Part shown: positions 16,341 through 35,479 of the stretch, in pieces
Layout of the letters: every line of letters starts with the position of its first letter
Numbering within the stretch: position 1 is the first letter of the stretch
NCBI RefSeq assembly: GCF_000828715.1
Contig: NZ_AP014583.1
Location: 3,594,001-3,658,000 of the forward strand
From: Winogradskyella sp. PG-2
Lineage (GTDB): Bacteria > Bacteroidota > Bacteroidia > Flavobacteriales > Flavobacteriaceae
Reading direction: 5' to 3'
Length of the DNA stretch: 64,000 nucleotides
Notes under the pieces: model-generated
Seen by the model: only the letters and a program-made list of their open reading frames with translations
The model's database searches: none
What the model was told of the DNA's origin: nothing
Made by a program: the position numbers and the translations under genes

Positions 16341-16371
16341 CGTAATTAAGATATCATTAGTTTATGTTTAT

Positions 16372-20604: not shown

Positions 20605-20630
20605 TGTTTCTTTTTAATGCACCATAACGG

Positions 20631-21013: not shown

Positions 21014-21183
21014 CAAGCAAAATGGCTACAATACATTGTAGCAGAGAGCTAAAAAGTTTAATCTATAAATCAAACTGATGGTTTATTCCTAAAATTGCTG
21101 GAAGTTTTATTATCTCCTTTTTGGACAAGAAAAGCAAGCTTAAAAATATCCCCCAAGATATAGAAGGTTGATTTTTAAAGTAT

Positions 21184-21606
21184 ATGAATGGTATTAGAAA
21201 TGTTTTTATTGCTACTGAAATCTACAAACGAACAGCTATTTCTATACACAATGAAATTTCAAAAATTCTGAATATTGACGATGATATAACGAACTTCCCT
21301 AGTTTCGAATCTTATCTAGACTTAGCAGACAAAAAAAATATTCTTGGAATTTACAAATTAAAGGAATCAACTAGTCCTAAAGCTCCAGAAATCATAGAAC
21401 TTCGTGTGAATGGCAACATATTGACTGCTTTTTCAGAAAAATATCCTGAATTTAAATATTATTGGCATAATAAAAATACTTTTTTAGGTATGTTAGGTGC
21501 TAACATAGTAATGTCTAATATCAAGTTTACTAAATCAAAAAATATAGAGTTTTACTTCTCAGGAGGTAAGAGTGATTTTGCTTATTATACCAAAGTAAAG
21601 GACTAA
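21184..21606 (+). CDS. Hypothetical protein
   Basis: This 140-residue frame is a possible real gene: even amino-acid composition, no signal peptide, an ATG start, and beta-rich C-terminal half (EIIELRVNGNILTAF, MSNIKFTKSKNIEFYFSGG). I do not recognise a family. It stands alone between the two transposase remnants, so it may be a passenger gene. There is no clear promoter; an A/T-rich stretch precedes it. Confidence 0.5.
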   Translation: MNGIRNVFIATEIYKRTAISIHNEISKILNIDDDITNFPSFESYLDLADKKNILGIYKLKESTSPKAPEIIELRVNGNILTAFSEKYPEFKYYWHNKNTFLGMLGANIVMSNIKFTKSKNIEFYFSGGKSDFAYYTKVKD

Positions 21607-21744
21607 TAAAATTATCGAAAATCAATAGTGACCTAAACGTTTAATAAAGAGGAATAAATATTTGTGTGGATATGCAATAAAATTTTAGACTTTAAGTTGA
21701 ATGACTATGCTGCTTGATTGTTGTTATACATATTTACTTCAAAT

Positions 21745-22032
21745 TCATTTATACCTTATGTAAGAGTGTCTTTTTCTCTTGTTATATTAAGTTTCTATCG
21801 AAATAAAAGTAGACAGCTCTGCTTGATTCTTTTGGTCATAATTATGTTTATATGTCCATTCTATCTTCAGGCTTTTAAAGAAGCTTTTAGCTATTGCATT
21901 ATCCCAACAATTACCCTTTCTACTCATACTTTGTTTTACCAATCCATTATAGTTTTTTAGAATGTTGGTGAATTTACAGCTAGCATATTGAGTTACTCTG
22001 TCTGAATGAAAAATCAGTTCTTTAGTAATTTA
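21745..22032 (-). mobile_element. Remnant of an IS3-family transposase (C-terminal integrase part)
   Basis: The minus strand reads ELIFHSDRVTQYASCKF, KQSMSRKGNCWDNAIAKSFF, SLKIEWTYKHNYDQ, then a stop and YNKRKRH. This is the end of an IS3-type OrfB integrase core. The second catalytic Asp (HSD) is kept, but the catalytic Glu of the WDNAxAESFF motif is Lys. An in-frame TAA interrupts the end, and the N-terminal half is missing. The element is dead. Ends and target duplication were not identified. Confidence 0.8.
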
Positions 22033-22562
22033 CATAAAAGTTTTAGGCAAGTGATTCTGTCGAGACTTTGATGTGTTGTGATAGGATTTGCAAAGGACTA
22101 TTTGAGCTATAATTAATTAGGTCAACCATTTATAATTTATTAGATAATAAAATCTTATCTTTTGGATTATCTAGCTTATAATTTCAACAAAATTATTTTT
22201 TTGTGATTGGTGTCTTTTTGCTTGAAGTTCCGTTATACCAATTCACAAAAATTATTATTGTAACATAAAATTGTAAAAAAGTCTTAACGTTATTTGTTAC
22301 AAAATCTAAATTTAGTATTATCATTTTTAACGCTAAATACTAAAGAAACTAGATATCTCAAATTTGAGAGATTTTGTATTAAAATTATTAGGAGTGTTTG
22401 TTCAGTTTTTTGCATACTTTTTTAAAAATAATAGCGCTAATATTTTTCTTTTTCGTTAAGAATTAATTAAATTGCAGAATGATTAGTTAATTTATTTTAG
22501 CTAACTTTCCCTAGTCTTTTAAAAAATTCTTAATTAGATTACAATTAAAACCAGTTATATTA
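22033..22562. other. Intergenic region upstream of the envelope gene run
   Basis: No gene is seen. It holds a perfect 14-base palindrome, TCTCAAATTTGAGA (22356-22369), and a weak promoter match, TTG at 22472-22474 with TATTTTAG at 22493-22500 (18-base spacing, one mismatch). These could drive and control the run starting at 22563. The left part is probably further IS debris. Confidence 0.45.
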
Positions 22563-23195
22563 ATGAAGAATATTAAATTAATACAAGACGCAGTAGATAC
22601 ATGGTATATACCCTTAATTTTTGGCCTTATTTTTGTTTTTTTAGGAGTATATTGCACTTTTTTTTCAGAGGACACGTTTTTAACTCTTTCGAAGATCATT
22701 GGATACGCTGTTTTGGTTTCAAGTCTTATAGAATTGTACGTAATTCTAGCTCATAAAAAAAAGAAAGTTACTTCTCAAGGAAGCTTAATGTTTGCATTTA
22801 TTGATTTAGCTATTGCTCTAATTCTAATTTCGAGACCTCAGATTAGCTTTATTGTGCTTTCCATTCTAATAGCTATGGTTGTGTTTGTGCGCTCTATATA
22901 CACCATATTTCGTTCCTTCGACCTAAAAGCTGTTGGCGTAAATGACTGGTGGCTTGCACTTCTTATGGGGCTTATCGGTATTGCGCTTTCTTACATTTTA
23001 ATTAATAACCCTAAACTTGCTGGTAAAACAGTTGCATTTTGGATTGGGATCGCTTTTGTAGCGACAGGAGTGTTAAGTGTTTTTATATCTTTTAAATTGA
23101 GGAAATTAAGAGCTGTTTCTGATAAAATTGGTTCAGAACTTAGGATTAAATGGGATGCAATTAATGAAGAAATAAATGAGAAATTGAATAATTAA
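22563..23195 (+). CDS. HdeD/DUF308 family membrane protein
   Basis: The 210-residue protein has six hydrophobic segments in two repeats of three (starting about residues 14, 43, 75, 97, 127 and 153) and a charged C-terminal tail. This is the HdeD/DUF308 layout. HdeD is linked to acid resistance in E. coli, but the family role is generally unknown. It opens a same-strand run of envelope genes; the next gene begins about 20 bases later. Confidence 0.8.
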   Translation: MKNIKLIQDAVDTWYIPLIFGLIFVFLGVYCTFFSEDTFLTLSKIIGYAVLVSSLIELYVILAHKKKKVTSQGSLMFAFIDLAIALILISRPQISFIVLSILIAMVVFVRSIYTIFRSFDLKAVGVNDWWLALLMGLIGIALSYILINNPKLAGKTVAFWIGIAFVATGVLSVFISFKLRKLRAVSDKIGSELRIKWDAINEEINEKLNN

Positions 23196-23214
23196 TTTGA
23201 TCTTAAAATTAAAT

Positions 23215-24078
23215 ATGATGTATAGTAAATTAGCCAAAAAAAATAAGCTATATACCACAAGGTTTATATTAAGCCTTGTTTTATTGTTTTTTTATAGTAT
23301 GAGTTTTTCCCAAACATTTACTATGGGAAAAAAGTGTAGAGCCTCCCTAGAGACGGCTCATTCAGCCTTAAAGTCAGAAATGTATAATGAAGCACTGGAA
23401 TTATTTGGTGCATTTTCCTCAAAATGTAAAACAAAAGATGCTAAAGAAGCTGCTGCCATAGGTAAAGCAGAGGCTTTTAATGGTTTAGAACAATACTCGG
23501 ATGCAATTGTAGAAGCAGATAAAGCCCTAAAGATTACAAAAGATAAAAGTTTAAATGGTCATTTTCAAAAAGCATTAGCACAGAATAAATCAGGAGATAT
23601 CGAGGGGTCTAAAACTTCCTTAGAGCGTGTTATGGCACTGACAGAAAATAATCAAAATATATCAGAAAGAGCATCAAACTATGCGCTCATAGCAGCATTA
23701 TACGAACGTCAGTTAAATGATATTGGTACTGCCCAAGAATATTTGAATAAAGCGAAGCAGCTAGATCCAAAGAATATTAATGTATTAATACAAGAAGGCA
23801 CAATGTATTCTACTATTAAAGATTTTAATCGGGCTTTTCAAATCTATGATTCAGCTCAGGTCCTAGATCCGAATAATTTAGAATTGGCTACTGCTCGTGT
23901 AAATTCTCGACTCCGCATGTTAGAATTTAAGTATGGAACGACAAAAGCACAAGAATTACGTAATAAAATGACAGTAGACGAGAAATCTCTTATTTGTGCA
24001 GATTTAAACACTTCTAAAGCACTCGGACTTAATGATATGAACAAGGATTTATTTTTAGCCTTAATATGTAATCAATAA
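23215..24078 (+). CDS. Tetratricopeptide-repeat protein, exported
   Basis: Taking ATG 23215, the protein has about 287 residues with a signal/anchor segment (LSLVLLFFYSMSFSQ). At least four to five TPR-like helical pairs follow (HSALKSEMYNEALELFGAF, GLEQYSDAIVEADKALKI, NDIGTAQEYLNKAKQLDP, DFNRAFQIYDSAQVLDP). A TTG six codons upstream is possible but less likely. TPR proteins of this kind are periplasmic scaffolds. It lies directly before the OmpA-type lipoprotein gene. Confidence 0.82.
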   Translation: MMYSKLAKKNKLYTTRFILSLVLLFFYSMSFSQTFTMGKKCRASLETAHSALKSEMYNEALELFGAFSSKCKTKDAKEAAAIGKAEAFNGLEQYSDAIVEADKALKITKDKSLNGHFQKALAQNKSGDIEGSKTSLERVMALTENNQNISERASNYALIAALYERQLNDIGTAQEYLNKAKQLDPKNINVLIQEGTMYSTIKDFNRAFQIYDSAQVLDPNNLELATARVNSRLRMLEFKYGTTKAQELRNKMTVDEKSLICADLNTSKALGLNDMNKDLFLALICNQ

Positions 24079-24090
24079 AAATCATATATT

Positions 24091-24747
24091 ATGAAAAAAT
24101 TAATAGTTTTAAGTTTATCCATGTCTTTGTTTTTTGGATGTGGAGCAATACAAAATATGAAGAAGCAACAAAAAGGGACCCTTGCGGGAACAGCTGGAGG
24201 TGCCTTACTAGGAGCTGCGGTTTCTAAAGGTAGTGTTTGGGGTATTTTAGCAGGTGCAGCCGTAGGCGGAGTTGCGGGTAATTTAATAGGGAAGAAGATG
24301 GATACGCAAGCGAGAGAATTAACACAAGCAGTTCCAACTGCAGAGGTTAATAGAGTTGGTGAGGGCATCAACATGACATTTGATTCGAGTTTAGCATTTA
24401 AAATAAACTCGGCCGAGCTTAGTAGTAGCTATTTACAGGACTTATCAGCGGCAGCACAAGTTTTTAAGAGTTATCCTGACACGAATATACTTATCGAAGG
24501 TCATACTGATGATTCAGGGGCTGCAGAGTACAACTACGCCTTATCAGAAAGGCGAGCGAAATCAGTGTCAAACTATTTTATTTCACAGGGCATAAGTGCC
24601 TCAAGGTTGACAACAAAATGGTTTGGAGAGACACAGCCAAAGTATCCAAATGATGATGCTAGTAGAGAAAAGAATAGACGTGTTGAACTCGCTATTTATG
24701 CAAATGACGCCATGGTTGGCGAAGCAAAAAGCGGTAAACTAGACTAG
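24091..24747 (+). CDS. Glycine-zipper plus OmpA-domain lipoprotein
   Basis: The 218-residue protein has a lipobox (LFFGC, Cys17). A glycine-zipper region (about 30-70; GTAGGALLGAAVSKG, GILAGAAVGGVAGNLIG) comes next. An OmpA peptidoglycan-binding domain (about 95-205) has ILIEGHTDDSGAAEYNY, LSERRAKSVSNYF and REKNRRVELAI. This matches the YiaD-type architecture of outer-membrane lipoproteins. It sits 12 bases after the TPR gene and 3 bases before the next. Confidence 0.9.
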   Translation: MKKLIVLSLSMSLFFGCGAIQNMKKQQKGTLAGTAGGALLGAAVSKGSVWGILAGAAVGGVAGNLIGKKMDTQARELTQAVPTAEVNRVGEGINMTFDSSLAFKINSAELSSSYLQDLSAAAQVFKSYPDTNILIEGHTDDSGAAEYNYALSERRAKSVSNYFISQGISASRLTTKWFGETQPKYPNDDASREKNRRVELAIYANDAMVGEAKSGKLD

Positions 24748-24750
24748 TTT

Positions 24751-25318
24751 ATGAAAAGTATAAGGGTATTGATCCTATTATCTTTACTTTTTTTTTTCAA
24801 AAAATAATGTTTGGAGTCAACATAATTATGAAGAAATAGAATATCATAATGGATTAAAAGGGACGAGTAGGTTGACCATCGGTATTGGCCATACGCACGT
24901 ATCTGAGGGGAAGATTGATGGGAAAACTGAATGGTTAACACTACCATCATGGGTATTAAATTATGATTATTGGCTCTCCAATAATTGGGCGATAGGTTTA
25001 CAAAACGATATCGTTCTAGAATCCTTTTTTATCGAAACTGGAGAGGATGAAATTTTAGAACGTTCTTATCCTGTGACTTCGGTTCCAGTTTTATTATACA
25101 AGCCAGCTAAACGGCTTATGATTATAGCAGGTGTTGGTGCAGAATTTACACATGAGAAAACCTTGACATTAACTCGATTAGGTCTTGAATATGGTTTTCA
25201 TTTACCAAATAAATGGGAGGTTGGAGCCGCCCTTGTTTGGGATAATAAGTGGAATTATTACAATTCTTGGGGACTTGCCATTACTATCAGTAGACTATGG
25301 CTTAAAGACAAACATTAA
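24751..25318 (+). pseudogene. Small outer-membrane beta-barrel protein, frameshifted at a T10 run
   Basis: ATG 24751 opens a signal peptide (MKSIRVLILLSLLFF) that runs into TAA after ten Ts at about 24787-24797. Taking out one T continues as FSKNNVWSQHNYEEIEY, LTIGIGHTHVSEGKIDGK and LPSWVLNYDYWLSNNWAIG, to TAA at 25316-25318. Intact, it would be about 188 residues, with alternating strands and an aromatic end typical of a beta-barrel. The length-variable T run sits inside the signal peptide, where slippage would act as an on/off switch; sequencing error is equally possible. Confidence 0.8.
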
Positions 25319-25337
25319 TTTAACAAATACTTTTATA

Positions 25338-26186
25338 ATGAAATTACTATTATTACTCTTTTTTAGCGCAAATTTGTTCGCGAGTCCTGTATCAAAAGAC
25401 ATCGCAAAAGCCTCAAAACAGGAGACTGCTAAAATTACAACTGAATCGAAGTCAGCAGGAATCTGGCATGACTTAATTACGCCAGATCTCGAAGCATCAA
25501 AAGCCTTTTATGGTGATCTTTTAGGATGGACCTTTTCAGACACTAACTTTAAAGGATTGCGTTATACTATTATTTATAACGGAGGAAATGTCATTGGAGG
25601 TATGATTGAAATTAAATCCGCTAAAAATGCGACGTGGATCAGTGCTCTACCGCTTGATAATACTACTCTAAGTACAAGAATAAAAGCAGTTATCGCCTCT
25701 GGCGCTAAAGCCATACTCCCTCCTATAAAACTTCCTGGGCGAGGTAAGCAAGTAGTTTTCGAAGGACCTTCGGGTGAAGAATTTTCTTTAATTTCTGAGA
25801 ACGAGTTTACAGTACAATTAGACGATTCTTCTAAAAATGGAAATTGGATTGGGATGGAATTATGGGCAGATAATCCTGCACAAGCCTCTACATTTTATGA
25901 CAATGCCTTTGGTGTTTCAACAACAAAGAGTACTTACGACAACAAACCGTACTGGACGTTTAATGCAGATGATAAAATTGTCGCAGGAATGTTACAGAAC
26001 CCTATAACCAATCAAGGGTCACAGTGGGTACCGTATATTCAGCAAAACGACATTAGCGCTATGCTGCCTGCATTAAAGAAGTCAGGAGCTAATATCCTAA
26101 TGAACCCTAATAAAAACATCAGAGATGGAAAAATTGGTATCTTTCAAGATCCTCAAGGTGCCATATTCGCTGTACAAACACTTTAA
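25338..26186 (+). CDS. Exported VOC (glyoxalase/dioxygenase-fold) protein
   Basis: The 282-residue protein from ATG 25338 has a signal peptide (MKLLLLLFFSANLFASP) and two VOC modules: about 40-150 (GIWHDLITPDLEASKAFYGD) and 165-280 (WIGMELWADNPAQASTFYD, FQDPQGAIFAVQTL). The frame stays open back to 25185, but that would overlap the barrel gene and lose the signal peptide. VOC proteins of the CFP32 type bind small molecules or metals. Export to the periplasm is unusual for them. Ligand unknown. Confidence 0.85.
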   Translation: MKLLLLLFFSANLFASPVSKDIAKASKQETAKITTESKSAGIWHDLITPDLEASKAFYGDLLGWTFSDTNFKGLRYTIIYNGGNVIGGMIEIKSAKNATWISALPLDNTTLSTRIKAVIASGAKAILPPIKLPGRGKQVVFEGPSGEEFSLISENEFTVQLDDSSKNGNWIGMELWADNPAQASTFYDNAFGVSTTKSTYDNKPYWTFNADDKIVAGMLQNPITNQGSQWVPYIQQNDISAMLPALKKSGANILMNPNKNIRDGKIGIFQDPQGAIFAVQTL

Positions 26187-26226
26187 TACTTATTCAAATC
26201 ACTCAATTAAAAATAGTTAATACATC

Positions 26227-26409
26227 ATGAAAATAGTAAAAAAATGCCTTCTCGTATGTCTTATAATCTTAGGGTCTGAAATGTTATCTAGCTGTGGTAA
26301 CGCAAGATGGGGAACCAATGCTGGTGTCAGTATGACTTGGGGTCCTAATGGTCCTCGTGTACGACCACACGTGGATGTTGATCTCTTTAACGGTGGTAGA
26401 ATACGATAA
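26227..26409 (+). CDS. Small lipoprotein
   Basis: The 60-residue protein has a clear lipobox (EMLSSC, Cys23) and a glycine/asparagine/arginine-rich mature part (GNARWGTNAGVSMTWGPNG, VDVDLFNGGRIR). I know no function. It lies in the envelope gene run, 40 bases after the VOC gene. Confidence 0.7.
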   Translation: MKIVKKCLLVCLIILGSEMLSSCGNARWGTNAGVSMTWGPNGPRVRPHVDVDLFNGGRIR

Positions 26410-26501
26410 GTAGAACTCGCGAAAAGTTAATAATTTATTAAATCAAATATTATGAATTTTAAAAAGTAAAAAAAGTAGTAGCTATAGCCTTTGCACTACA
26501 A

Positions 26502-27545
26502 ATGATTTTTATGCCAACGTCTTTTGGCTGTACAGGAATTGTTGTTAAAACACAAAACGGAGTCACAATCCCAGCAAGAACAATGGAGTTTGGATTTGAC
26601 GTTCGCTCTAAATTATTAGTCATTTCAAAAGGAACGACGATAAAATTTCTGAGTTCGATTGATGGTAAAGATGGGTATACTATGAAAACCAAATATGGTT
26701 TTGCGGGTATGAATGCTGTAGAAAAGAATATTGTAGTTGATGGTGTAAATGAAGCAGGACTTTACTTAGGCTGTTTTTATTTTGCTGGATTTGCGAACTA
26801 TGAAAAACTAACTCCGAAAAACCAGTCTACAGCAGTGTCTATCGAAGAATTAGGAAATTATGTGCTTGGAAGTTTCGCAACTGTAGATGAAGTTATAGAA
26901 GGACTTCAAGATATAACGCTTGTAGGGTCATTCATCGAAGATATTCAAGGTGAAGCGCCATTTCATTATGCAGTTACTGATAAAACGGGTCGTTCTGTGG
27001 TTATTGAATATACGAAAGATGGACTACAAGTATACGAAAACACGGTAAATGTAGTCTGCAACAACCCAACTTATGATTGGCATTTAACCAATTTAAGAAA
27101 CTACGTGAATTTAGCGCCAAATAACGCTAAAGGATTTACTTTGAATGGAGAAAACTATACCCCGCTTGGTGAAGGCACAGGTATGCTTGGCTTACCAGGA
27201 GACTACACCTCTCCTTCTCGATTTGTAAGAGCAACTGCTTTTATTAATACAACACTTCCAAGCAAGAATATAGAAGAAGGCATATTTCGTGCTTTCCATA
27301 CATTAAACGCTTTCGATATTCCAAAAGGCGCAGTAAGGCAACCTACCCCAACTGGCGTCCATACAGATTACACCGTTTGGACATCGGCTGTGGATACCAA
27401 AAATTCAGTGTACTATTATAAAACGTATAAAAACCAAAATGTAAAGAAATTGGTGTTAAAAGATATCTTAGATCAAGCTAATGGCCAAATGTTAGTGATA
27501 GAGTCAGAGACACCAAGAATCTACGAAAACGTTGTTAAAGGCTAA
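26502..27545 (+). CDS. Choloylglycine hydrolase-type N-terminal-nucleophile amide hydrolase, signal peptide frameshifted
   Basis: The protein fits the linear-amide C-N hydrolase (CBAH) family: nucleophile Cys in FGCTGIVVKTQNGVTIPARTMEFG, later DKTGRSVVIEYTKDG, VVCNNPTYDWHLTNLRNY, GLPGDYTSPSRFVRATAF. Such enzymes cut amide bonds in bile salts, penicillin V, N-acyl homoserine lactones or N-acyl ethanolamines. From ATG 26502 the leader is only nine residues. ATG 26452 (MNFKK) hits TAA, but one extra A in the A5 run at 26461-26465 gives VKKVVAIAFALQMIFMPTSFG before the Cys. That would be a full signal peptide whose cleavage exposes the nucleophile. It is therefore likely secreted, with a frameshift or base-call error. 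Confidence 0.82.
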   Translation: MIFMPTSFGCTGIVVKTQNGVTIPARTMEFGFDVRSKLLVISKGTTIKFLSSIDGKDGYTMKTKYGFAGMNAVEKNIVVDGVNEAGLYLGCFYFAGFANYEKLTPKNQSTAVSIEELGNYVLGSFATVDEVIEGLQDITLVGSFIEDIQGEAPFHYAVTDKTGRSVVIEYTKDGLQVYENTVNVVCNNPTYDWHLTNLRNYVNLAPNNAKGFTLNGENYTPLGEGTGMLGLPGDYTSPSRFVRATAFINTTLPSKNIEEGIFRAFHTLNAFDIPKGAVRQPTPTGVHTDYTVWTSAVDTKNSVYYYKTYKNQNVKKLVLKDILDQANGQMLVIESETPRIYENVVKG

Positions 27546-27551
27546 TAAATA

Positions 27552-29321
27552 ATGAATAAGTTTTTAGTTATAATCATTCTAATTTTGTCTATAGTCTTGG
27601 GATGTAAGGAAAACACAAAGAGTTCTGAACCTGATGAATCCCAAACTAAAACAAAATTGTCAACACAACAAACGATTTATTTTGGTGGGGATATCATAAC
27701 CATGGATGGTAAAGTATTGGAACTTGCAGAAGCTGTAGTGGCGCAAAATGATGAAATTGTATATGTGGGATCCCTCGCTGAGGCTAAAACAGAATTTCCA
27801 AAGGCAACAGAACACAATCTCAAGGGCAACACCCTAATGCCTGGTTTGGTAGAGCCTCACGTACATCCTTCATTAGCAGCTACGATGCTACCTAATGAGA
27901 TTATAGCGCCATATGACTGGGTACTGCCAAACGGAACCAAAAAAGGGGTCACAGGACATGATGCCTACATGGAACGTATTACAAACTCCATTAATGAGAA
28001 TGCAAAAGAAGGTGAAATGTATTTTATTTGGGGATATCATCAGTTATGGCATGGCGAATTATCACGAGATATGATCAATACCATAACTAAAGACAAGCCG
28101 GTTGGGATTATCCACCGCTCGTTTCATGAAATTTATCTTAATGATGCCGCAATTGCCTTGTTAGGTATTACAGAAGCCGACTTTAAGGGGAATCCTCAAG
28201 TAGAATGGGAAAAAGGTCATTTTTACGAAGGTGGCTGGTTAGCATTGGTTCCCAAAATGGCCACAATCATGCTTGAGCCTACACGTTACATGAAAGGTCT
28301 AGGCATGATGACCCAATTAATCCAACAAAATGGAATTACTACTGTCGCTGAACCTGGTTTCCCAAGTTCTGATTTCGATGGTGAGTTAACGCTTCTCAAA
28401 AAGGAAATGTCAAAAGAACCACCATATGACGTGTATCTCATTCCAAGTGGTACGCAATTATTTGGAATGAAAGGCGGTAATAAAGAGGCTATGGCTTTTA
28501 TGGAAACTTTAGAAAGTGCCTACAGCACAGACAATATCCATTTTTTACCCAAACAAGTGAAATTGTTTTCTGATGGAGCAATTTATAGCCAAGCCATGCA
28601 AATGAAAGAGAATTATGACGATGGACATAATGGTGAATGGATGACCCCATTAGATTTGTTCCAAGAACAAATAAGCATGTACTGGAACAATGGTTATAAA
28701 ATTCACGTACATTCTAACGGTGATAAAGGCATTCAACAGGTCTTAGACTATTTAGTTGAAGATCAAAAAAGAAAACCGAGAAAGAATCATCGGTTTACCC
28801 TACACCACATGGGTTACTTTACAGACGATATGGCCGCACAAATTGCAGAAATGGGCATTGAAGGTTCTGTAAACCCCTATTACTTATGGGCTTTAGCCGA
28901 TAAGTACAGTGAAGTGGGCTTAGGAAAAGACCGAGGAGAGAACTTAGTACGCATAAATAGTTTAGTGAAGCGTGATGTGCCAGTATCATTTCACTCTGAC
29001 TTTTCTATGGCGCCTATGGAGCCATTAACACTTGCTTGGACCGCTGTAAACCGAGTAACCTCTCAAAACAATGCGTTTTCTCAAGACCAACGTATTTCAG
29101 TCTATGATGCAATGCGTGCCATAACTATAGATGCGGCACGTACGCTTAATTTAGAAAAGCAAATCGGTTCTATAGCTGAAGGGAAACGCGCTAATTTTGT
29201 GATTTTAGATAAAAGTCCTTTTACAATAGACCCTATGGAAATTAAAGATATAAAAGTGTTAGCAACAATTTTTGAAGGTCGCTTTAATATCATTAAATCG
29301 AATAACCTTAGAGCGAGATAA
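27552..29321 (+). CDS. YtcJ-type amidohydrolase lipoprotein, copy 1
   Basis: The 589-residue protein has a lipobox (IVLGC). Its amidohydrolase-3/YtcJ body has the metal site LMPGLVEPHVHPS (usual GxxDxHxH shows E for D), KLFSDGAIYSQ, HVHSNGDKGIQQVLD, HHMGYF, SFHSDFSMAP and the late ANFVILDKSPF. These zinc enzymes hydrolyse N-formyl, N-acyl or imide compounds, or isomerise exocyclic bonds; substrates are rarely known. It lies 6 bases after the Ntn hydrolase, which suggests a joint task on amides at the cell surface or in the periplasm. Confidence 0.87.
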   Translation: MNKFLVIIILILSIVLGCKENTKSSEPDESQTKTKLSTQQTIYFGGDIITMDGKVLELAEAVVAQNDEIVYVGSLAEAKTEFPKATEHNLKGNTLMPGLVEPHVHPSLAATMLPNEIIAPYDWVLPNGTKKGVTGHDAYMERITNSINENAKEGEMYFIWGYHQLWHGELSRDMINTITKDKPVGIIHRSFHEIYLNDAAIALLGITEADFKGNPQVEWEKGHFYEGGWLALVPKMATIMLEPTRYMKGLGMMTQLIQQNGITTVAEPGFPSSDFDGELTLLKKEMSKEPPYDVYLIPSGTQLFGMKGGNKEAMAFMETLESAYSTDNIHFLPKQVKLFSDGAIYSQAMQMKENYDDGHNGEWMTPLDLFQEQISMYWNNGYKIHVHSNGDKGIQQVLDYLVEDQKRKPRKNHRFTLHHMGYFTDDMAAQIAEMGIEGSVNPYYLWALADKYSEVGLGKDRGENLVRINSLVKRDVPVSFHSDFSMAPMEPLTLAWTAVNRVTSQNNAFSQDQRISVYDAMRAITIDAARTLNLEKQIGSIAEGKRANFVILDKSPFTIDPMEIKDIKVLATIFEGRFNIIKSNNLRAR

Positions 29322-29420
29322 ATAATTTAACAAGTGCAAATAATAAAACTTATTTGTTGATGTAAAAACCATTAAAAATTCAACCTAACAATATTAAATT
29401 TTATATAAATACAGATAAAA

Positions 29421-31175
29421 ATGAAAAAAATGAAAGACTTATCCACATTAGTACTGCTGTTGGCTGTGCTATTTATAGGCTGTAAGGACAACTCAAAAAC
29501 ATCTTCAGAAGATGGAACATCTGCCGTTGCCGAACCCTACAAATTACAACAAACTGTCTACTATGGTGGTGATATTGTCACTATGGCTGGAGAGACGCCA
29601 AACTATGTAGAAGCAGTTGTACAACGCGAAGGCCAAATTATTTTTACGGGGTCTAAAGCCGATGCTATGGCGCGTTTCGAGGGTAAAGCAGACTTAGTCG
29701 ATTTAGAAGGCAAAACGATGCTTCCTGGATTTATAGATGGCCATGGTCACGTTTTTAATGTAGGCTTACAGGCTGTTTCTGCCAACCTTTTACCGGCGCC
29801 AGATGGTGACGCAAACAGTGTTGAAGCCTTACAAAAAATTCTCAAAAAATGGATTTCTGAAAATGAAAACTTTATTAAGACTACCGGTTGGGTTATTGGA
29901 TTTGGATATGACGATTCACAACTGGACCGCTACCCTACCAAAGAAGATTTAGATGCTATTTCTACGGAAGTCCCAATCATTATTATACACCAATCGGGTC
30001 ACCTTTCCGTTGTAAATTCAAAAGGACTTGAAATGGTAAAATATAATGCTGAGACTAAAGATCCCAAAGGCGGTAAAATAAGACGTGTTGATGGAAGTAA
30101 TGAGCCTAATGGTGTCTTAGAAGAAGTTGCTCACTTTATGGTATTACTTACTGGTGTGCTACCTAATATGACCCCAGAATTGCAAGACGATATGCTTGTT
30201 AAAGGTCAAAATCTCTATGCTTCATTTGGATATACTACTGCTCAAGAAGGTCGTAGTACACCAGATGGTTCCGCTACTATGGAACGTGCGGCAGAAAAAG
30301 ACGCCTTAATACTAGATGTTGTCTCGTACGTAGATATACTAAGTAATAGAAAGGGTGCAGATTCTAAATACAAAGGAAAAACGTATACCAATAAATACAG
30401 AGTGGGTGGTGTTAAATTGAACCTTGATGGCTCACCACAAGGAAAAACCGCCTGGTTATCTCACCCTTACCACATTGTACCTAGTGGAGAACCAAAAGAT
30501 TACCACGGGTATGAAAGTATGACCGATGAGGAAGCCTACAAACATGTTGCTGACGCTTATGAGAACAACTTGCAAATTATGTCACATTGCAACGGGGACT
30601 CCGCTATTGACCAATACATTAAAGCCGTTAAAAAAGCAAATGCCGAATTTGGTAATGATGATCGTAGAACTATAATCATACACGCACAAACCGCTAGAGA
30701 AGACCAATTAGATAGTTTTGTAGAAGAAAAAATATGGCCTTCATTTTTCCCGATGCATACCTTTTACTGGGGTGATTATCACGTAAATTCAGTATTAGGA
30801 AAAGAACGTGCTTACAAAATATCGCCTACAAATACGGCATTGAAAAAAGGACTTAAATTTACAAGTCATCACGATGCACCTGTTGCTTTACCAAGTTCTA
30901 TTCGCGTACTATCTGCAACAGTAACAAGAATGTCTCGTAGTGGCGCCGTTATAGGTCCAGAAGAGCGCGTTACCACATATCAAGGGCTTAAGGCACTTAC
31001 AGATTGGGCAGCTTACCAACATTTTGAAGAAGCTACCAAAGGCACCATAGAGAAAGGGAAAGTTGCTGATTTTGTGATTTTAGACAAAAATCCGCTAAAA
31101 ATTGATCCTTTAGAATTAGAAAACCTTAACGTTGTTGCTACCTATAAAGGGGGTAAAGCCATTTACAATAAATAA
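29421..31175 (+). CDS. YtcJ-type amidohydrolase lipoprotein, copy 2
   Basis: The 584-residue protein has a lipobox (LFIGC). The same family motifs appear as in the neighbour, but the first metal site is standard: MLPGFIDGHGHVFN, KLNLDGSPQGKTAWL, MSHCNGDSAIDQYI, IIHAQTAREDQ, TSHHDAPVALP and ADFVILDKNPL. The two copies are clearly paralogous but far diverged, so they probably have different substrates. A 99-base gap separates them. A hairpin at 31182-31214 follows. Confidence 0.88.
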   Translation: MKKMKDLSTLVLLLAVLFIGCKDNSKTSSEDGTSAVAEPYKLQQTVYYGGDIVTMAGETPNYVEAVVQREGQIIFTGSKADAMARFEGKADLVDLEGKTMLPGFIDGHGHVFNVGLQAVSANLLPAPDGDANSVEALQKILKKWISENENFIKTTGWVIGFGYDDSQLDRYPTKEDLDAISTEVPIIIIHQSGHLSVVNSKGLEMVKYNAETKDPKGGKIRRVDGSNEPNGVLEEVAHFMVLLTGVLPNMTPELQDDMLVKGQNLYASFGYTTAQEGRSTPDGSATMERAAEKDALILDVVSYVDILSNRKGADSKYKGKTYTNKYRVGGVKLNLDGSPQGKTAWLSHPYHIVPSGEPKDYHGYESMTDEEAYKHVADAYENNLQIMSHCNGDSAIDQYIKAVKKANAEFGNDDRRTIIIHAQTAREDQLDSFVEEKIWPSFFPMHTFYWGDYHVNSVLGKERAYKISPTNTALKKGLKFTSHHDAPVALPSSIRVLSATVTRMSRSGAVIGPEERVTTYQGLKALTDWAAYQHFEEATKGTIEKGKVADFVILDKNPLKIDPLELENLNVVATYKGGKAIYNK

Positions 31176-31181
31176 TAAAAC

Positions 31182-31214
31182 GAGGCTTACTTTTTAAATA
31201 AAAAAGTAAGCCTC
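31182..31214 (+). promoter_or_regulatory. Long perfect hairpin between amidohydrolase 2 and the next gene
   Basis: The arms GAGGCTTACTTTTT (31182-31195) and AAAAAGTAAGCCTC (31201-31214) form a 14-bp stem with a 5-base loop. No T run follows on the plus strand, and the next ATG is only 10 bases away. It may therefore stabilise the upstream mRNA 3' end or hide the next start, rather than act as a classic terminator. Confidence 0.6.
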
Positions 31215-31223
31215 TACAATACC

Positions 31224-31697
31224 ATGTCAGAGAACATTCAACAATTAAGTAAACAAAAAGTATCCTATCCCAGTGCTCAAGCGGACATTATGGTTGATGA
31301 CGTCTTTATTGACGATTTATCTCTACAACACACGTTAAAAACAAATTATACCGACTTGTTTGCTCAAGGGCGTTTTAAAGAATTTTTCATGCTCTACTTA
31401 GGGAGAACACTTAAAGATCTCTATCATAGTAAAAACGAATACTTAAATTCAGCATTGCCCAACGACGGCGAAACACATATTGCCCCATTATATGGTTGTT
31501 CAGACTCCTGCTGCGTTTACCTCTATGTTAAGGTCGCAAGACAACAATCACTAATTCACTGGGAGCAGATTGGACGTAATGCGGCATTTTTAAGCCCATC
31601 AAAAGCAACAAATATTGAATGGATTCCAGATTTCCAACCCATCACATTTGATTTCGATAACTATCAACAAATCTCAAACATTTTAAATCATGATTAA
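31224..31697 (+). CDS. Hypothetical protein with GCSDSCC motif
   Basis: The 157-residue protein has no signal peptide or membrane segment. Notable is LYGCSDSCCVYLYVKV in the middle (about 91-106), where three cysteines could bind metal. A tryptophan/aspartate-rich end follows (IEWIPDFQPITFDFDNY). I do not recognise the family. It overlaps the cystatin-like gene by 8 bases, so both are translated together. Confidence 0.65.
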   Translation: MSENIQQLSKQKVSYPSAQADIMVDDVFIDDLSLQHTLKTNYTDLFAQGRFKEFFMLYLGRTLKDLYHSKNEYLNSALPNDGETHIAPLYGCSDSCCVYLYVKVARQQSLIHWEQIGRNAAFLSPSKATNIEWIPDFQPITFDFDNYQQISNILNHD

Positions 31698-32055
31698 AAA
31701 TATTATTAAAGTATCACTTCTAGCAACTGCCGTATTAGTGTTTGTTAAATGTAAAGAGGATCAAAAAGTAACACCAACAGAGAATACAGAAAAAATAGTG
31801 GAACAAAAACAACATCGCGTGGGTGGATGGCAGTCAATAGACGTCAACGACACCGTAAAAGACTTAGCAAATTTTGTAATAGCTGACAAACAAATCACAA
31901 GTCCATTAAAAAAATTGTCAAATGCCTCAACTCAAATAGTTAGCGGTAAAAACTATAAATTCGATATGTTACTCGAAAACGGAGAACTTTGGACTGCTCA
32001 AGTCTATGTGAATATACAGAAAGAAAAAAGCGTCACTAAGCTAGAAAAAAAATAG
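31690..32055 (+). CDS. Cystatin-like lipoprotein
   Basis: The 121-residue protein has a lipoprotein-type leader (ATAVLVFVKC) and a cystatin domain (about 42-118). The domain shows the N-terminal glycine pair in RVGGWQSIDVND, LANFVIADKQI, the inhibitory loop QIVSG (cystatin QxVxG), NYKFDMLLENGELW and AQVYVNI. Cystatins block papain-like cysteine proteases by inserting the QxVxG loop into the active site. Bacterial cystatins are rare and little studied. This one would be anchored in the envelope, in the same gene run as a cysteine-nucleophile amide hydrolase. Confidence 0.78.
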   Translation: MIKNIIKVSLLATAVLVFVKCKEDQKVTPTENTEKIVEQKQHRVGGWQSIDVNDTVKDLANFVIADKQITSPLKKLSNASTQIVSGKNYKFDMLLENGELWTAQVYVNIQKEKSVTKLEKK

Positions 32056-32082
32056 AGGACTAACTAAAAAAGATATTGTCAA

Positions 32083-32475
32083 ATGAAAACTAAACTAACT
32101 CTCTTATTTACCCTATGTTTGTCGCTTCAAATGATTGCTCAAAATAGTGATTGGAAAGTATTAGGAAAAAAAGATGTTACCTACAAACATGAAGAAGATG
32201 TTGTCAACCTTCGCGGTTCAGAGAAAGATATCAAAAAATTCAAAATTCGATGCACCCAAGGTACCTTGAAATTAAAAAAAGTCGTTGTAATTTATAAAGA
32301 TAAGTCAAGAGACGAAAAAAAACCAAAAGGAACAGGTATTATTAATAAAAATATGAGTTCCTTTACCTTTTCAATTGATAAAAATAAAACACCAGATAAA
32401 ATTGAGTTATCCTATGAAGCCATTGGCAATATGGTACTCACAAAACGAGCGAAAATTGAACTTTTAGGACGTTAA
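32083..32475 (+). CDS. Secreted hypothetical protein, lysine-rich
   Basis: The 130-residue protein has a signal peptide (LLFTLCLSLQMIAQ). The very basic, beta-rich mature part includes DVTYKHEEDVVNLRGSEKD, TLKLKKVVVIYKDKSRDEK and KIELLGR. Proteins with this look (a DUF2541-like fold of short strands) are known in Bacteroidota without function; I am unsure of the assignment. It is co-oriented with the cystatin gene, 27 bases downstream. Confidence 0.65.
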   Translation: MKTKLTLLFTLCLSLQMIAQNSDWKVLGKKDVTYKHEEDVVNLRGSEKDIKKFKIRCTQGTLKLKKVVVIYKDKSRDEKKPKGTGIINKNMSSFTFSIDKNKTPDKIELSYEAIGNMVLTKRAKIELLGR

Positions 32476-32498
32476 TGTCCTACACAAAATCTTAAACT

Positions 32499-33245
32499 AT
32501 GTTAAATAAAACAATTTTATCAAACACTCTATTATTAGTGTGTTTTTTTATGAGCATGACTATGTCTGCTCAAGATACTGATGCGAGTACGGTAGATGCC
32601 TCGAAACCAACCAATTTATATACGCAAGTCAACGCTGCTTTTGAATATCAAGCCCACAAAAATGCATCAGATTTGTACGGTACACGTATAAATGTGCAAT
32701 ACGCCTTTGACCCTGATAATCTATTATTAGTTGAGGTCCCATTTCTGTACAATGAGGCTACCAAAAATTTTGGAATTTCTGATACGCGAGTACGTTATTT
32801 TCATGCGCTAAAAAGAAATATTACTGAGCGTTTAATAGCTATTGCTCCATATGCTGATATAACTATACCAACAGGATCATTTTCTAACGGTCTTGGAGCT
32901 GATGTTTGGTCACTCTCGGCAGGTGTTGTTGCTGGTTATGTAGTATCGCCTAAAATTGCCATGTTTCCAGGAATAGGATACGTACATGTCACTAAACCAA
33001 ATGATTACCCTGGGAATTCTCAAAATGGTATTAATTTACAAACGAATATGAGTGTTAGTTTTACCCAGAGAGCTTTTCTTTTTATTAATCCTATTGTTAC
33101 TTTTTTATCAGATACAATATGGAGTGGTGAGTTCAATTTCAATTACATGATTACTCCTAATAAATTTAAAGTAAACGCGGGGTATTTTCCTAATTTCACC
33201 AACGATATCAATACATTTAGAGTTGGTGCAACACTATTTTTATGA
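32499..33245 (+). CDS. Outer-membrane beta-barrel protein
   Basis: The 248-residue protein has a signal peptide (residues 1-25, SMTMSAQ) followed by regular amphipathic strands (LYTQVNAAFEYQAHKN, RINVQYAFDPDNLLLVEVPF, FNFNYMI) and ends in F-x-VGATLFL, a typical outer-membrane assembly signal. It looks like a transporter or porin-type barrel of 12 or so strands. Its stop overlaps the start of the next gene by 4 bases (ATGA). Confidence 0.78.
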   Translation: MLNKTILSNTLLLVCFFMSMTMSAQDTDASTVDASKPTNLYTQVNAAFEYQAHKNASDLYGTRINVQYAFDPDNLLLVEVPFLYNEATKNFGISDTRVRYFHALKRNITERLIAIAPYADITIPTGSFSNGLGADVWSLSAGVVAGYVVSPKIAMFPGIGYVHVTKPNDYPGNSQNGINLQTNMSVSFTQRAFLFINPIVTFLSDTIWSGEFNFNYMITPNKFKVNAGYFPNFTNDINTFRVGATLFL

Positions 33246-33628
33246 AAGAAAAAACAATTAAAAGTCGGTTAATAACTATTTTATTTCGTTTTCTAATAAT
33301 TAGCGGTATTGTATTTTGTGTCGTACTTTGGATCTGCTCATGGACTTATTCTGAAGGTACTCGTTCTGGAAATCTGATTAAAGTCTCTAAAAAAGGCGTT
33401 GTATTTAAAACTATTGAAGGAGAGTTAAACCTTGGTGGAGTTAGTATCGCCGAAGGCTTAGAAGGAAATATTTGGTCTTTTACAGTTTTAGATGACGAAT
33501 TGACTAATGTCTTTAAGCCCTATGAAGGCAAAAAAGTTAAAGTGCACTATAAGGAGCGATATAAGACAATGCCATGGTTAGGAGATACCAATTATATCGT
33601 TACTGAAATTGAAGAACTCAAGCCATAA
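33242..33628 (+). CDS. Single-pass inner-membrane protein
   Basis: The 128-residue protein has one transmembrane segment (about 14-36) and a small soluble beta domain: SEGTRSGNLIKVSKKGVVF, KTIEGELNLGG and YEGKKVKVHYKERY. Similar proteins in Bacteroidota are often mislabelled '6-phosphogluconate dehydrogenase'; they lack any dehydrogenase fold. Role unknown. It overlaps the barrel gene by 4 bases. Confidence 0.7.
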   Translation: MKEKTIKSRLITILFRFLIISGIVFCVVLWICSWTYSEGTRSGNLIKVSKKGVVFKTIEGELNLGGVSIAEGLEGNIWSFTVLDDELTNVFKPYEGKKVKVHYKERYKTMPWLGDTNYIVTEIEELKP

Positions 33629-33656
33629 ATGAATACTTAAAGGATTCCATTATACT

Positions 33657-34316
33657 ATGAAAACTAATATTTATCTTATTTTAACTCTTGTAAGTCTTAT
33701 GTCATGCAAATCAGCAGTAAATAAAAAAACGCTCTGGATAAACAGTTCAAAAGTAGACTGCGTAGGCGTTGGGCCCATGAAATGTTTACAAGTTAAATTT
33801 AATGCTAGTGAAAACTGGAGCAACTTTTATGATGCTATTGAAGGTTTTGAATATCAACCAGGTTTCGTATATGAATTAGAAGTTCAAGTTGACACCTTAG
33901 ACAAAGCCAATTTACCGGCAGACAAATCAATATATGTTTACAAATTACTTAATGTTGTTTCAAAAAAACAAGATGCTAAATTACGCCTGAATGATATTTG
34001 GGTCGCTACACATATTGAAAACAAAGAACTATCACGCGTAGAACCAATGCCTCAAATAGAATTATCATTAAAAACAATGCAATTAATGGGTACAGATGGC
34101 TGTAATAATATTCGTGGATCTATAAAAACACTTACAGATGATGCGATCTCTTTTGGCCCTTTATTAGGTACAAAAAAGTTATGTCCTAATATGACGACGC
34201 CTAATGCATTTAATACAGCTTTTGAAGGTGTTACATCCTATAAACTAGACCAATTAGAACTTATGTTTTTTGATAACGCTAACAAAGAGGTGATACGATT
34301 TAAAAAAGTAGACTAA
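33657..34316 (+). CDS. Lipoprotein with DUF4377 and META domains
   Basis: The 219-residue protein has a lipobox (LVSLMSC). A DUF4377 domain (about 25-105; WINSSKVDCVGVGPMKCLQV, FYDAIEGFEYQPGFVYEL) is followed by a META/HslJ domain (about 110-219; LNDIWVATHIENKEL, LMGTDGCNNIRGSI, GTKKLCPNM). META proteins are envelope stress or heat-shock-associated. This is the third META domain in the accessory region, with those at 15.5 and 16.4 kb. Confidence 0.85.
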   Translation: MKTNIYLILTLVSLMSCKSAVNKKTLWINSSKVDCVGVGPMKCLQVKFNASENWSNFYDAIEGFEYQPGFVYELEVQVDTLDKANLPADKSIYVYKLLNVVSKKQDAKLRLNDIWVATHIENKELSRVEPMPQIELSLKTMQLMGTDGCNNIRGSIKTLTDDAISFGPLLGTKKLCPNMTTPNAFNTAFEGVTSYKLDQLELMFFDNANKEVIRFKKVD

Positions 34317-34334
34317 AAGGACACTTTTAGTAAG

Positions 34335-34365
34335 TTGCGTATATTTTATAAAACCATTATTTTTG
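34335..34365 (+). promoter_or_regulatory. Promoter for the porin-family gene
   Basis: TTG at 34335-34337 and TATTTTTG at 34358-34365, 20 bases apart, fit the Bacteroidota consensus. They would give the last gene of the run its own transcript. Confidence 0.55.
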
Positions 34366-34381
34366 AATAAACTACATCATT

Positions 34382-34924
34382 ATGAAAAGAATATTTATTA
34401 TTGTATTAGTATTTATGTCTTACGGAATGCACTCCCAAGGTATAGATTTTGGAATAAAAGCAGGGGTGAATTTTTCTACATTGAGCGATGCTGCTGCTTT
34501 TGATAATAAAGCTGGTTTTGTGGGAGGAATTTTTGCTGGTATAAATTTTAATGATAAATGGGGTATTAGAGCAGACGCCTTATATTCAAAACAAGGTGCC
34601 AAAATAACTGATGGAGACTTTGATTTAAGTTACCTCAATATCCCCGTTGTTATAAAACGTAGATTGTTTAGTAAACTACATCTTCAAGTGGGACCTCAAT
34701 TTGGCTTTCAACTTGATAAAAAAACCGTAATACCTGATGTCGATAGCATCGATACTAAAAAGTTTGATTTATCAGGAGTTGTTGGATTAGGCCTTGATGT
34801 GCCCCTGGGTTTACGATTAGAAGCGCGCTACGTATTTGGACTTTCTGATGTTTCAGATATTGTAGATTTTGACAATGGTAAAAACAGAGTATTTACAATA
34901 CTTCTAGGGTATTCGTTCTTATAG
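34382..34924 (+). CDS. Porin family (outer-membrane beta-barrel) protein
   Basis: The 180-residue protein has a signal peptide (VLVFMSYGMHSQG) and the eight-strand OMP_b-brl_2 layout: DFGIKAGVNFSTLSD, GFVGGIFAGINFNDKWG, RADALYSKQGAKI, LSYLNIPVVIKR, GVVGLGLDVPLGLRLEARY. It ends in an aromatic-rich strand (FTILLGYSFL). These small barrels are common in Bacteroidota and usually of unknown function. Own promoter upstream, strong terminator downstream. Confidence 0.88.
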   Translation: MKRIFIIVLVFMSYGMHSQGIDFGIKAGVNFSTLSDAAAFDNKAGFVGGIFAGINFNDKWGIRADALYSKQGAKITDGDFDLSYLNIPVVIKRRLFSKLHLQVGPQFGFQLDKKTVIPDVDSIDTKKFDLSGVVGLGLDVPLGLRLEARYVFGLSDVSDIVDFDNGKNRVFTILLGYSFL

Positions 34925-34962
34925 TTAAATATATTACATACTGTACGCACTAACCTTTAAAT

Positions 34963-35006
34963 AAACACCTAATCTTAGTTTCTAAACTAAGATTAGGTGT
35001 TTTTTT
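34963..35006. terminator. Strong intrinsic terminator ending the envelope gene run
   Basis: The arms AAACACCTAATCTTAG.. (34963-34981) and ..CTAAGATTAGGTGTTT (34984-35002) form a very long perfect stem with a tiny loop, followed by T7 at 35000-35006. Confidence 0.92.
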
Positions 35007-35234
35007 AAATTACAAATGATAGCACTAGTAAATATGTATTCCATATTTTTTTACTTTAAGCTATTCTCGGCTTTTACCAAGCCTCCAAACTTATTCCACA
35101 ATTGTATTACATTACAGATTCTAAAATGTCATAGACATGACTTTAAAGATTCAAGACAAACGCATCGGTTTTCTAAAGTTATCAATAGTCTAATCGAAGG
35201 TTATAATTTGCTAATGTTTCAAAAAAACGGCCTC

Positions 35235-35355
35235 GTATAACCGTCAGTTACGGTTTTAAAGTTACTGTTTTTCGATTAACCACTGACGCTCGTAATTCCG
35301 CGTGGATTTGGACGTAGTCGTATCCGCTGTAATTGCGGTTATACATTGTTGTAAG
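35235..35355. repeat. Structured intergenic element E
   Basis: The outer arms GTATAACCG (35235-35243) / CGGTTATAC (35336-35344) are a perfect 9-bp inverted repeat. An alternative pair, CGTCAGT (35242-35248) / ACTGACG (35282-35288), overlaps it. The right edge reads ATTGTTGTAAG, like elements A and C. No gene lies within. The rest of the 34925-35479 gap holds a terminator, a short ATT repeat and nothing else I can support. Confidence 0.6.
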
Positions 35356-35419
35356 TAGTGTTTTCTAGTTAAAAGAAAAACCAAATAATCCATGATTAAG
35401 TAGGAACACTTGACACCGT

Positions 35420-35437
35420 ATTATTATTATTATTATT
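35420..35437. repeat. ATT trinucleotide repeat, six units
   Basis: Six perfect ATT units occur between element E and the cyclase gene's end. It is non-coding and could vary in length between strains. Confidence 0.7.
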
Positions 35438-35479
35438 GAATTATAAATATGGATGAATGGATCAAATTATAGTTAATAC

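What the first reader, a model, noticed from the sequence alone, without database searches (positions are those of the whole stretch)
22563..34924. Candidate undescribed system: an envelope-anchored amide-hydrolysing gene run with its own cystatin
Fourteen or so same-strand genes with mostly short gaps encode a DUF308 membrane protein, TPR protein, glycine-zipper/OmpA lipoprotein, two to three beta-barrels, an exported VOC protein, a small lipoprotein, a cysteine-nucleophile amide hydrolase (CBAH type), two diverged YtcJ amidohydrolase lipoproteins, a Cys-rich protein, a cystatin-like lipoprotein and a META lipoprotein. Seen: order, signals, family motifs. Known: CBAH enzymes cut N-acyl amides and YtcJ enzymes cut formyl/imide/amide bonds. 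Inferred: the genes act together on an amide substrate (N-acyl signal, antibiotic or N-acyl lipid) taken in through the barrels, with OmpA/TPR parts as scaffold. I know of no described system with this set.
Basis: partly seen in the sequence, partly recalled or inferred. Interest (0 to 1): 0.75.

Follow-up and report, generated by a model that had tools for sequence, protein, structure and literature searches.

The report
Marine envelope amide-cleaving operon with cystatin
A marine bacterium carries a conserved but apparently unstudied gene set for cutting amide bonds at its cell envelope, in which one cutting enzyme travels with, and in relatives is fused to, a cystatin, a kind of protease inhibitor best known from animals and plants.

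Summary
The gene run is real. The window lies in a Winogradskyella-like flavobacterium; the block recurs in similar order in Winogradskyella, Kordia, Polaribacter and Tenacibaculum records. Kordia keeps nearly the whole run, without the choloylglycine-type hydrolase (CBAH). Here it sits in a 23.6-kb island absent from 8 of 8 congeners inspected. CBAH sits near YtcJ1 in Bacteroidota and Campylobacterota; these CBAHs form a supported clade with one further copy. YtcJ2 carries all four predicted sulfonate-binding residues of newly described metal-dependent bile salt hydrolases; 1 of 20 background YtcJs does. Best reading: an envelope system that cleaves N-acyl amides, perhaps taurine-type conjugates, by two unrelated chemistries, with a cystatin shielding its enzymes from papain-like proteases. 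Co-inheritance and fusion are shown; substrate, shielding and co-transcription are inferred. Two genes here carry frame breaks at homopolymer runs.

The parts
22563..23195 (+). DUF308 membrane protein; matched only in Kordia (30%) among 22 loci
23197..24078 (+). TPR protein; conserved in Kordia (69%) and Tenacibaculum
24091..24747 (+). glycine-zipper/OmpA lipoprotein; conserved in Kordia, Polaribacter, Tenacibaculum
24872..25318 (+). beta-barrel-like protein A; frame broken at a T run near 24795, upstream of this ORF
   Evidence: barrel by appearance, no Pfam match
25338..26186 (+). exported VOC (glyoxalase-fold) protein
26227..26409 (+). 60-aa lipoprotein (CGNARWGTNAGV... type), recurrent next to VOC
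26502..27545 (+). CBAH-type Ntn amide hydrolase, nucleophile Cys10 of this ORF; frame broken at an A run in the signal-peptide region (near 26455)
27552..29321 (+). YtcJ1: Amidohydro_3 lipoprotein, complete metal-ligand set; relatives carry a fused C-terminal cystatin
29421..31175 (+). YtcJ2: Amidohydro_3 lipoprotein with the metalloBSH-like residue set S192 H194 Q340 N391 H446
31182..31214 (.). 14-bp hairpin in the YtcJ2-CysR gap
31224..31697 (+). Cys-containing protein without visible signal peptide (YGCxDxCC), family unknown
31690..32055 (+). cystatin lipoprotein; GG and QIVSG motifs
32083..32475 (+). 130-aa exported protein of unknown family, recurrent in the block
32499..33245 (+). beta-barrel-like outer-membrane protein B (76-86% in five relatives' loci)
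   Evidence: barrel by appearance, no Pfam match above cut-off
33242..33628 (+). 128-aa membrane-anchored protein
33657..34316 (+). DUF4377 + META lipoprotein
34382..34924 (+). OMP_b-brl outer-membrane protein; not found in the related blocks
34963..35002 (+). 18-bp terminator-like hairpin, probable operon end
13275..36849 (.). island: stretch between an SDR gene and an MBL-fold gene; in 8 of 8 congeners fetched, 10 bp to about 6 kb lie between the MBL gene and the nearest matched gene on that side

Best explanation
The block is a horizontally spread operon for hydrolysing N-acyl amides in the cell envelope. An exported Cys-nucleophile Ntn hydrolase (CBAH) and two lipid-anchored metal-dependent amidohydrolases (YtcJ1, YtcJ2) cut amide-linked conjugates that enter through outer-membrane barrels. 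CBAH and YtcJ2 resemble the two known bile-salt-hydrolase chemistries. The likeliest substrates are therefore anionic N-acyl amine conjugates such as taurine- or glycine-type conjugates: N-acyltaurines, conjugated bile salts, or the sulfonolipids of Bacteroidota. The cystatin, separate here and fused to YtcJ1 in relatives, is a companion that keeps papain-like cysteine proteases off the anchored enzymes. Shown: gene order, co-inheritance, fusion, predicted fold, catalytic-residue sets. Inferred: substrate class, uptake, protease shielding, co-transcription.
For: Same block in several genera. 17 of 22 related YtcJ1 loci carry at least one of CBAH, YtcJ2 or cystatin nearby: YtcJ2-type in 11, CBAH in 7, cystatin in 7. 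CBAH adjoins YtcJ1 upstream in flavobacteria and downstream in Campylobacterota MAGs; in a Bacteroidales MAG it lies upstream with two genes between. The 8 linked CBAHs and one further copy form a clade, support 98/98. Cystatin fused to Amidohydro_3 in 25 of 25 hits, the query among them, plus 2 of the 120 rows listed. The invariant residues of 31 standalone cystatins include the GG and QxVxG motifs. The window's cystatin models as a cystatin. YtcJ2 has S, H, Q, N, H at the metalloBSH positions (numbering from PMC13081902).
Against: No substrate evidence. The metalloBSH sulfonate residues come from docking in a preprint, whose sequence could not be compared here; YtcJ2 lacks its C-terminal domain. 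CBAH is below NCBIfam's cut-offs for both bile salt hydrolase and penicillin V amidase, and the active-site Asp is Glu. CBAH and YtcJ2 are each missing from many YtcJ1 loci, and 5 of 22 have none of the three partners. Kordia has the block without CBAH. No sulfoacetaldehyde acetyltransferase over cut-off in the genome. A surface-export motif is not conserved on YtcJ1, so shielding from outside proteases would have to work in the periplasm. The genome has its own papain-like protease with a lipoprotein-like start, which could be the cystatin's target instead. CBAH and barrel A are frame-broken in this assembly.
Confidence: 0.5

Rival explanations
1. The cystatin is a structural or catalytic accessory of YtcJ1, not a protease inhibitor: its wedge binds the amidohydrolase and shapes substrate access, much as loss of the C-terminal domain of a metalloBSH costs about fourfold activity.
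For: Natural C-terminal fusions; an unrelated Cys-containing C-terminal extension at the same position in Campylobacterota, Desulfobulbaceae and gammaproteobacterial YtcJ1; the C-terminal domain matters for BwBSH1 (PMC13081902).
Against: The invariant residues of standalone cystatins include the protease-binding motifs GG and QxVxG (roles recalled); one fusion carries two tandem cystatins (P0095), which fits inhibition better; many YtcJ1s have no cystatin fused or found nearby.
Confidence: 0.25
2. The hydrolases inactivate a hostile or signalling amide (acyl-homoserine lactone, lipopeptide or beta-lactam): a quenching or self-protection island.
For: Patchy island-like distribution; nearest solved relatives of the CBAH are penicillin V acylases; this enzyme family includes AHL acylases (recalled).
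Against: No gene in the set was assigned to resistance, efflux or quorum sensing by Pfam (five members unassigned); two metallo-amidohydrolases plus envelope genes look more like nutrient deconjugation; the metalloBSH-like residues of YtcJ2 point to anionic conjugates.
Confidence: 0.2
3. The system turns over endogenous amide lipids of the Bacteroidota envelope, such as sulfonolipids or glycine and ornithine lipids.
For: Members are envelope-anchored; sulfonolipids place a sulfonate next to an N-acyl amide as taurine conjugates do (recalled); barrels and small lipoproteins are in the set.
Against: YtcJ1-CBAH pairs occur in Campylobacterota, which are not known to make sulfonolipids (recalled); the block is rare in the genus although such lipids would be common.
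Confidence: 0.15
4. Chance neighbours in a variable island, without a common pathway.
For: The insertion site is variable in the 8 congeners inspected; member genes come and go between loci.
Against: Order kept across genera, and CBAH-YtcJ1 or cystatin-YtcJ1 kept across phyla or fused.
Confidence: 0.05

Closest known systems
metalloBSH of Bilophila wadsworthia (preprint PMC13081902; abstract, passages and sections 7 and 9 read)
   Same: PF07969 amidohydrolase, exported; YtcJ2 has the metal ligands, the catalytic His and the four predicted taurine-sulfonate residues at alignable positions, with identical spacing for K to Q (8), H to D (39) and H to S (82).
   Different: Other spacings differ; YtcJ2 lacks the C-terminal domain (584 aa vs a 101-kDa protein); it is a lipoprotein of a marine bacterium near a CBAH; overall relatedness to BwBSH1 not tested.
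Choloylglycine hydrolase family (penicillin V acylase 3pva, bile salt hydrolases)
   Same: Full-length family match (264 bits), Cys nucleophile after the signal-peptide region, active-site Arg, Asn, Arg conserved (roles recalled).
   Different: Below the equivalog cut-offs for both PVA and BSH; the active-site Asp is Glu; linked to YtcJ1.
Cystatins / stefins (PF00031)
   Different: Bacterial lipoprotein, or domain fused to an amidohydrolase. A 2009 survey (PMC2784779, passages read, abstract in part) noted one Polaribacter protein with three cystatin domains fused to 'another gene', which the passages do not name.
YtcJ / N-substituted formamide deformylase (NfdA)
   Same: Amidohydro_3 fold; nearest solved structures of the fusion model are the uncharacterised 3igh and 3icj.
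   Different: 12 of 20 background YtcJs have D, G and I where YtcJ2 has S, Q and N. NfdA itself was not compared.

Membership tests
CBAH (PF02275) superfamily | profile match over curated cut-off | tested here: met
   264.4 vs 20.4 bits
CBAH (PF02275) superfamily | Cys nucleophile after the signal-peptide region, with Arg, Asn, Arg (roles recalled) | tested here: met
   C10, R26, N187, R240; the same residues in 18 of 18 CBAHs aligned
bile salt hydrolase / penicillin V amidase equivalogs | NCBIfam equivalog cut-offs | tested here: not met
   226.6 vs 350 (BSH) and 238 vs 600 (PVA) bits
bile salt hydrolase / penicillin V amidase equivalogs | active-site Asp at position 20 (recalled) | tested here: not met
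   Glu in the window and in 14 of 18 CBAHs aligned, window included
YtcJ-type amidohydrolase (PF07969) | profile match and HxH, Lys, His, His, Asp metal ligands | tested here: met
   193 and 356 bits; ligands present in both
metalloBSH | Ser194, Gln381, Asn443, His544 and His196 equivalents | tested here: met
   YtcJ2: S192, Q340, N391, H446, H194; 12 of 12 full-length cluster YtcJ2-type rows full (two truncated ones dropped); 1 of 20 background rows full. YtcJ1 fails: Tyr at two positions in 23 of 23 rows
metalloBSH | additional C-terminal domain | tested here: not met
   YtcJ2 is 584 aa and its Amidohydro_3 match runs to residue 582
metalloBSH | sequence clustering with BwBSH1 | not testable with these tools
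metalloBSH | taurocholate hydrolysis | not testable with these tools
   needs purified enzyme
cystatin | cystatin fold | tested here: met
   predicted model of the window's protein
cystatin | N-terminal Gly and QxVxG wedge motifs | tested here: met
   invariant in 31 of 31 aligned
cystatin | Pfam gathering score | tested here: inconclusive
   window 18.2 bits (below 22.2); orthologues 26.8 and 29.3, fused domains 43.8 and 34.5 (above)
cystatin | second-hairpin Trp | tested here: inconclusive
   present in the window and many rows, replaced in others
cystatin | inhibition of papain-like proteases | not testable with these tools
   needs assay

The most novel reading that the evidence does not exclude
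An undescribed envelope system in which YtcJ-type metallo-amidohydrolases are guarded by a dedicated cystatin, as a separate lipoprotein or as a built-in domain, and work in one operon with a Cys-nucleophile hydrolase on the same N-acyl (probably sulfonate) conjugates: the two bile-salt-hydrolase chemistries joined in one marine system, with a bacterial cystatin given a defined partner.
Probability: 0.35. Interest if true: 0.8.

Novelty: new variant of a known kind. Interest (0 to 1): 0.62.

Why it matters
Bacterial cystatins are rare and were proposed in 2009 to be emergency inhibitors against host proteases (PMC2784779). A recurrent physical link to one enzyme family gives them a testable native job. 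If YtcJ2 and CBAH act on the same conjugates, marine bacteria join two unrelated deconjugating chemistries in one operon, which would bear on the origin of the metal-dependent bile salt hydrolases and on the cycling of taurine-type or sulfonolipid compounds in the sea.

Tried and rejected
Chance neighbourhood: rejected by order conservation and fusion. A taurine-catabolic link through sulfoacetaldehyde acetyltransferase: best match 316 bits against a cut-off of 676 in the own genome. Surface export by a lipoprotein export signal (PMC5080379, passages read): a crude pattern after the first Cys of residues 12-30 fits 14 of 113 YtcJ1, 19 of 31 standalone cystatins and 1 of 24 fusions; not convincing, and the first Cys is not always the lipobox. 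A known domain for the Campylobacterota C-terminal extension: two examples gave no Pfam match and one no PDB match. Rfam: nothing at gathering score in 19600-37600. tRNA: none in the window. The Cys-rich protein alignment matched 3 of 395 genomes of the order, the own included. The structure lists for the fusion model were filled by the amidohydrolase domain and did not test its cystatin part; contacts between its domains could not be measured, as no coordinates were handed out. A search for marine bile acids was seen as a listing only; it includes a marine Thalassomonas that makes cholic acid (PMC9860883, start of abstract). A reciprocal search in Campylobacterota did not run.
Full report
What is there. 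The window (one contig of 3.81 Mb, G000) holds sixteen same-strand genes from 22563 to 34924 by my count. Pfam assigns DUF308, TPR, OmpA with glycine zipper, VOC, CBAH, two Amidohydro_3, DUF4377+META and an OMP barrel; barrel A, the Cys-rich protein, the 130-aa exported protein, barrel B and the 128-aa membrane protein have no match above cut-off, and the 60-aa lipoprotein was not scanned. Two reading frames break at homopolymer runs, at the start of the first barrel and in the signal-peptide region of CBAH. The relative Winogradskyella DT_119 (L023/L069) has an uninterrupted CBAH frame. The longest terminator-like hairpin of the scanned 18 kb follows the last gene.

Is it conserved. CBAH is rare: 10 of 149 relatives at E up to 1e-3 and, with a profile at E up to 1e-60, 3 of 397 family members, the own genome included in both counts. 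In Winogradskyella DT_119 the order CBAH-YtcJ1-YtcJ2-CysR-cystatin-130aa-barrelB-128aa-(an extra 212-aa lipoprotein)-META is kept at 42-90% identity, with the ends of sLipo and VOC at the contig edge. A scan of the genome-contig collection with a YtcJ1 alignment, through two short peptide patterns and so far from exhaustive, returned 24 loci; 22 (L062-L083) are used here and 2 weak ones (L084, L085) were dropped. Kordia ALOHA_ZT_18 has DUF308-TPR-OmpA-barrelA-VOC-sLipo-YtcJ1-YtcJ2-CysR-cystatin-130aa-barrelB-128aa-(gap)-META, without CBAH; barrel A, CysR and the 128-aa gene match there in two pieces each. A Polaribacter MAG keeps OmpA-VOC-sLipo-YtcJ1 to META. Tenacibaculum SG-28 has VOC-sLipo-YtcJ1-YtcJ2-TPR-OmpA-barrelB. 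Among the 22 loci, YtcJ2-type genes are nearby in 11, CBAH in 7, cystatin (separate or fused) in 7, and at least one of the three in 17; L070, L072, L074, L076 and L083 have none, and L070 and L072 are contigs of about 5 kb. L062 and L069 are the same records as G076 and G066, so they are not extra genomes. A further genome, G091 (L043), has YtcJ1-VOC-sLipo-DUF4136-barrel-YtcJ2.

Island. I fetched the site from 8 of the 65 genus genomes that matched the MenA-like neighbour. In 8 of 8 the flanking core genes lie close together. The SDR gene (12459-13274) and the MBL-fold gene (36850-37527) are 10 bp apart in G030, about 0.7 kb in G061 and 0.8 kb (partial SDR match) in G040. In the other five, 2.0-6.2 kb separate the MBL gene from the nearest matched gene on that side. 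No gene of the block matched between them (tblastn E up to 1e-8, window ORFs of 80 aa or more). The window has 23.6 kb there. GC at third positions is 0.28-0.34 for OmpA to cystatin, against mostly 0.15-0.27 in the flanks, with one flank gene at 0.31. The AsmA-like gene of the same island was matched in 14 of 68 genus genomes, the own genome included, at 46-50% identity in the others. This fits horizontal acquisition.

The hydrolases. CBAH is closest among solved structures to penicillin V acylases, keeps Cys, Arg, Asn and Arg, and has Glu for the active-site Asp (roles recalled). The 8 CBAHs found near YtcJ1, from Bacteroidota, Campylobacterota and an unclassified MAG, form with one further copy of DT_119 (on a 4.4-kb contig) a clade with support 98/98; the other 9 CBAHs of relatives lie outside. 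A 2026 preprint describes metal-dependent bile salt hydrolases of the same PF07969 family (PMC13081902; abstract, passages and sections 7 and 9 read). It names metal ligands, a catalytic His and four residues predicted by docking to hold the taurine sulfonate. YtcJ2 has all of them, with equal spacing for three intervals and different spacing elsewhere. All 12 full-length cluster YtcJ2-type rows have the full set. So do 15 further sequences picked for similarity to YtcJ2, which is not an independent test; a sixteenth row (L003, an own-genome paralogue) reads like a typical YtcJ. Of 20 background YtcJs, 12 read D-H-K-G-H-I at the first six compared places after HxH, 3 read S-H-K-G-H-I, 4 differ more and 1 (L105) has the full set. 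YtcJ1 keeps Ser, His and Asn but has Tyr at the other two positions in 23 of 23 rows. YtcJ2 lacks the preprint's C-terminal domain, so I do not file it as a metalloBSH; it may work like one.

How it probably works. Outer-membrane barrels admit an anionic N-acyl conjugate. CBAH and the lipid-anchored YtcJ enzymes hydrolyse the amide. The products are taken up or used for carbon and nitrogen. The cystatin protects the anchored enzymes from papain-like proteases, from outside or from the cell itself. Gene linkage, fusion, predicted fold and residues are shown; substrate, uptake, shielding and co-transcription are inferred.

Known or new. The library holds only open-licence PubMed Central papers. 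Searches found no paper with the terms. (6 papers) and the 10 listed of 140 showed nothing relevant in the listings. led to the 2009 cystatin survey, which mentions one Polaribacter protein with triplicated cystatin fused to an unnamed gene (PMC2784779, passages). led to the metalloBSH preprint. The families are known. The pairing of cystatin with amidohydrolases and the mixed Ntn/metallo operon appear undescribed in that library.

Noticed in passing
window 16372-19635 (-): AsmA-like (label by appearance) 1087-aa protein ending in a stretch that matches the META gene; in Winogradskyella DT_119 a 739-aa AsmA-like gene follows the META gene of the block, so the two recur together.
   Followed up: partly
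L070, L074, L075, L077, L079, L083 (YtcJ1 C-termini): A different C-terminal extension, GC..SAG(Y/F)xWC...CERPWELAKK, stands where the cystatin is in Campylobacterota, Desulfobulbaceae and gammaproteobacterial YtcJ1; examples from L075 and L083 had no Pfam match and L075's no PDB match.
   Followed up: partly
G000:C1:2344545-2346175: A YtcJ2-like paralogue elsewhere in the same genome is split by a frame break; with the two breaks in the window this suggests homopolymer errors or decay.
   Followed up: no
L042 6114-7514: In W. aurantiaca (G076) the block follows a membrane protein that looks like a short-chain fatty acid transporter (AtoE-like; label recalled from the sequence, no family search).
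   Followed up: no
L071 7992-12199 and L078 6287-9864: In two MAGs an OmpA-domain protein and a large lipoprotein of one family lie beside YtcJ1-CBAH (clusters C2 and C24).
   Followed up: no
G066 (C74, C36, C2): Three CBAH genes in one Winogradskyella MAG, two of them close (87% and 75%) to the window's.
   Followed up: partly
P0107, P0130 and similar rows: Many YtcJ1 relatives at 65-67% identity, some named Polaribacter or Porticoccaceae, one on 145 contigs: perhaps abundant in ocean plankton.
   Followed up: no
window 13275-36849: The SDR-MBL interval is a variable insertion site in the genus: 10 bp to about 6 kb in the eight congeners looked at.
   Followed up: partly
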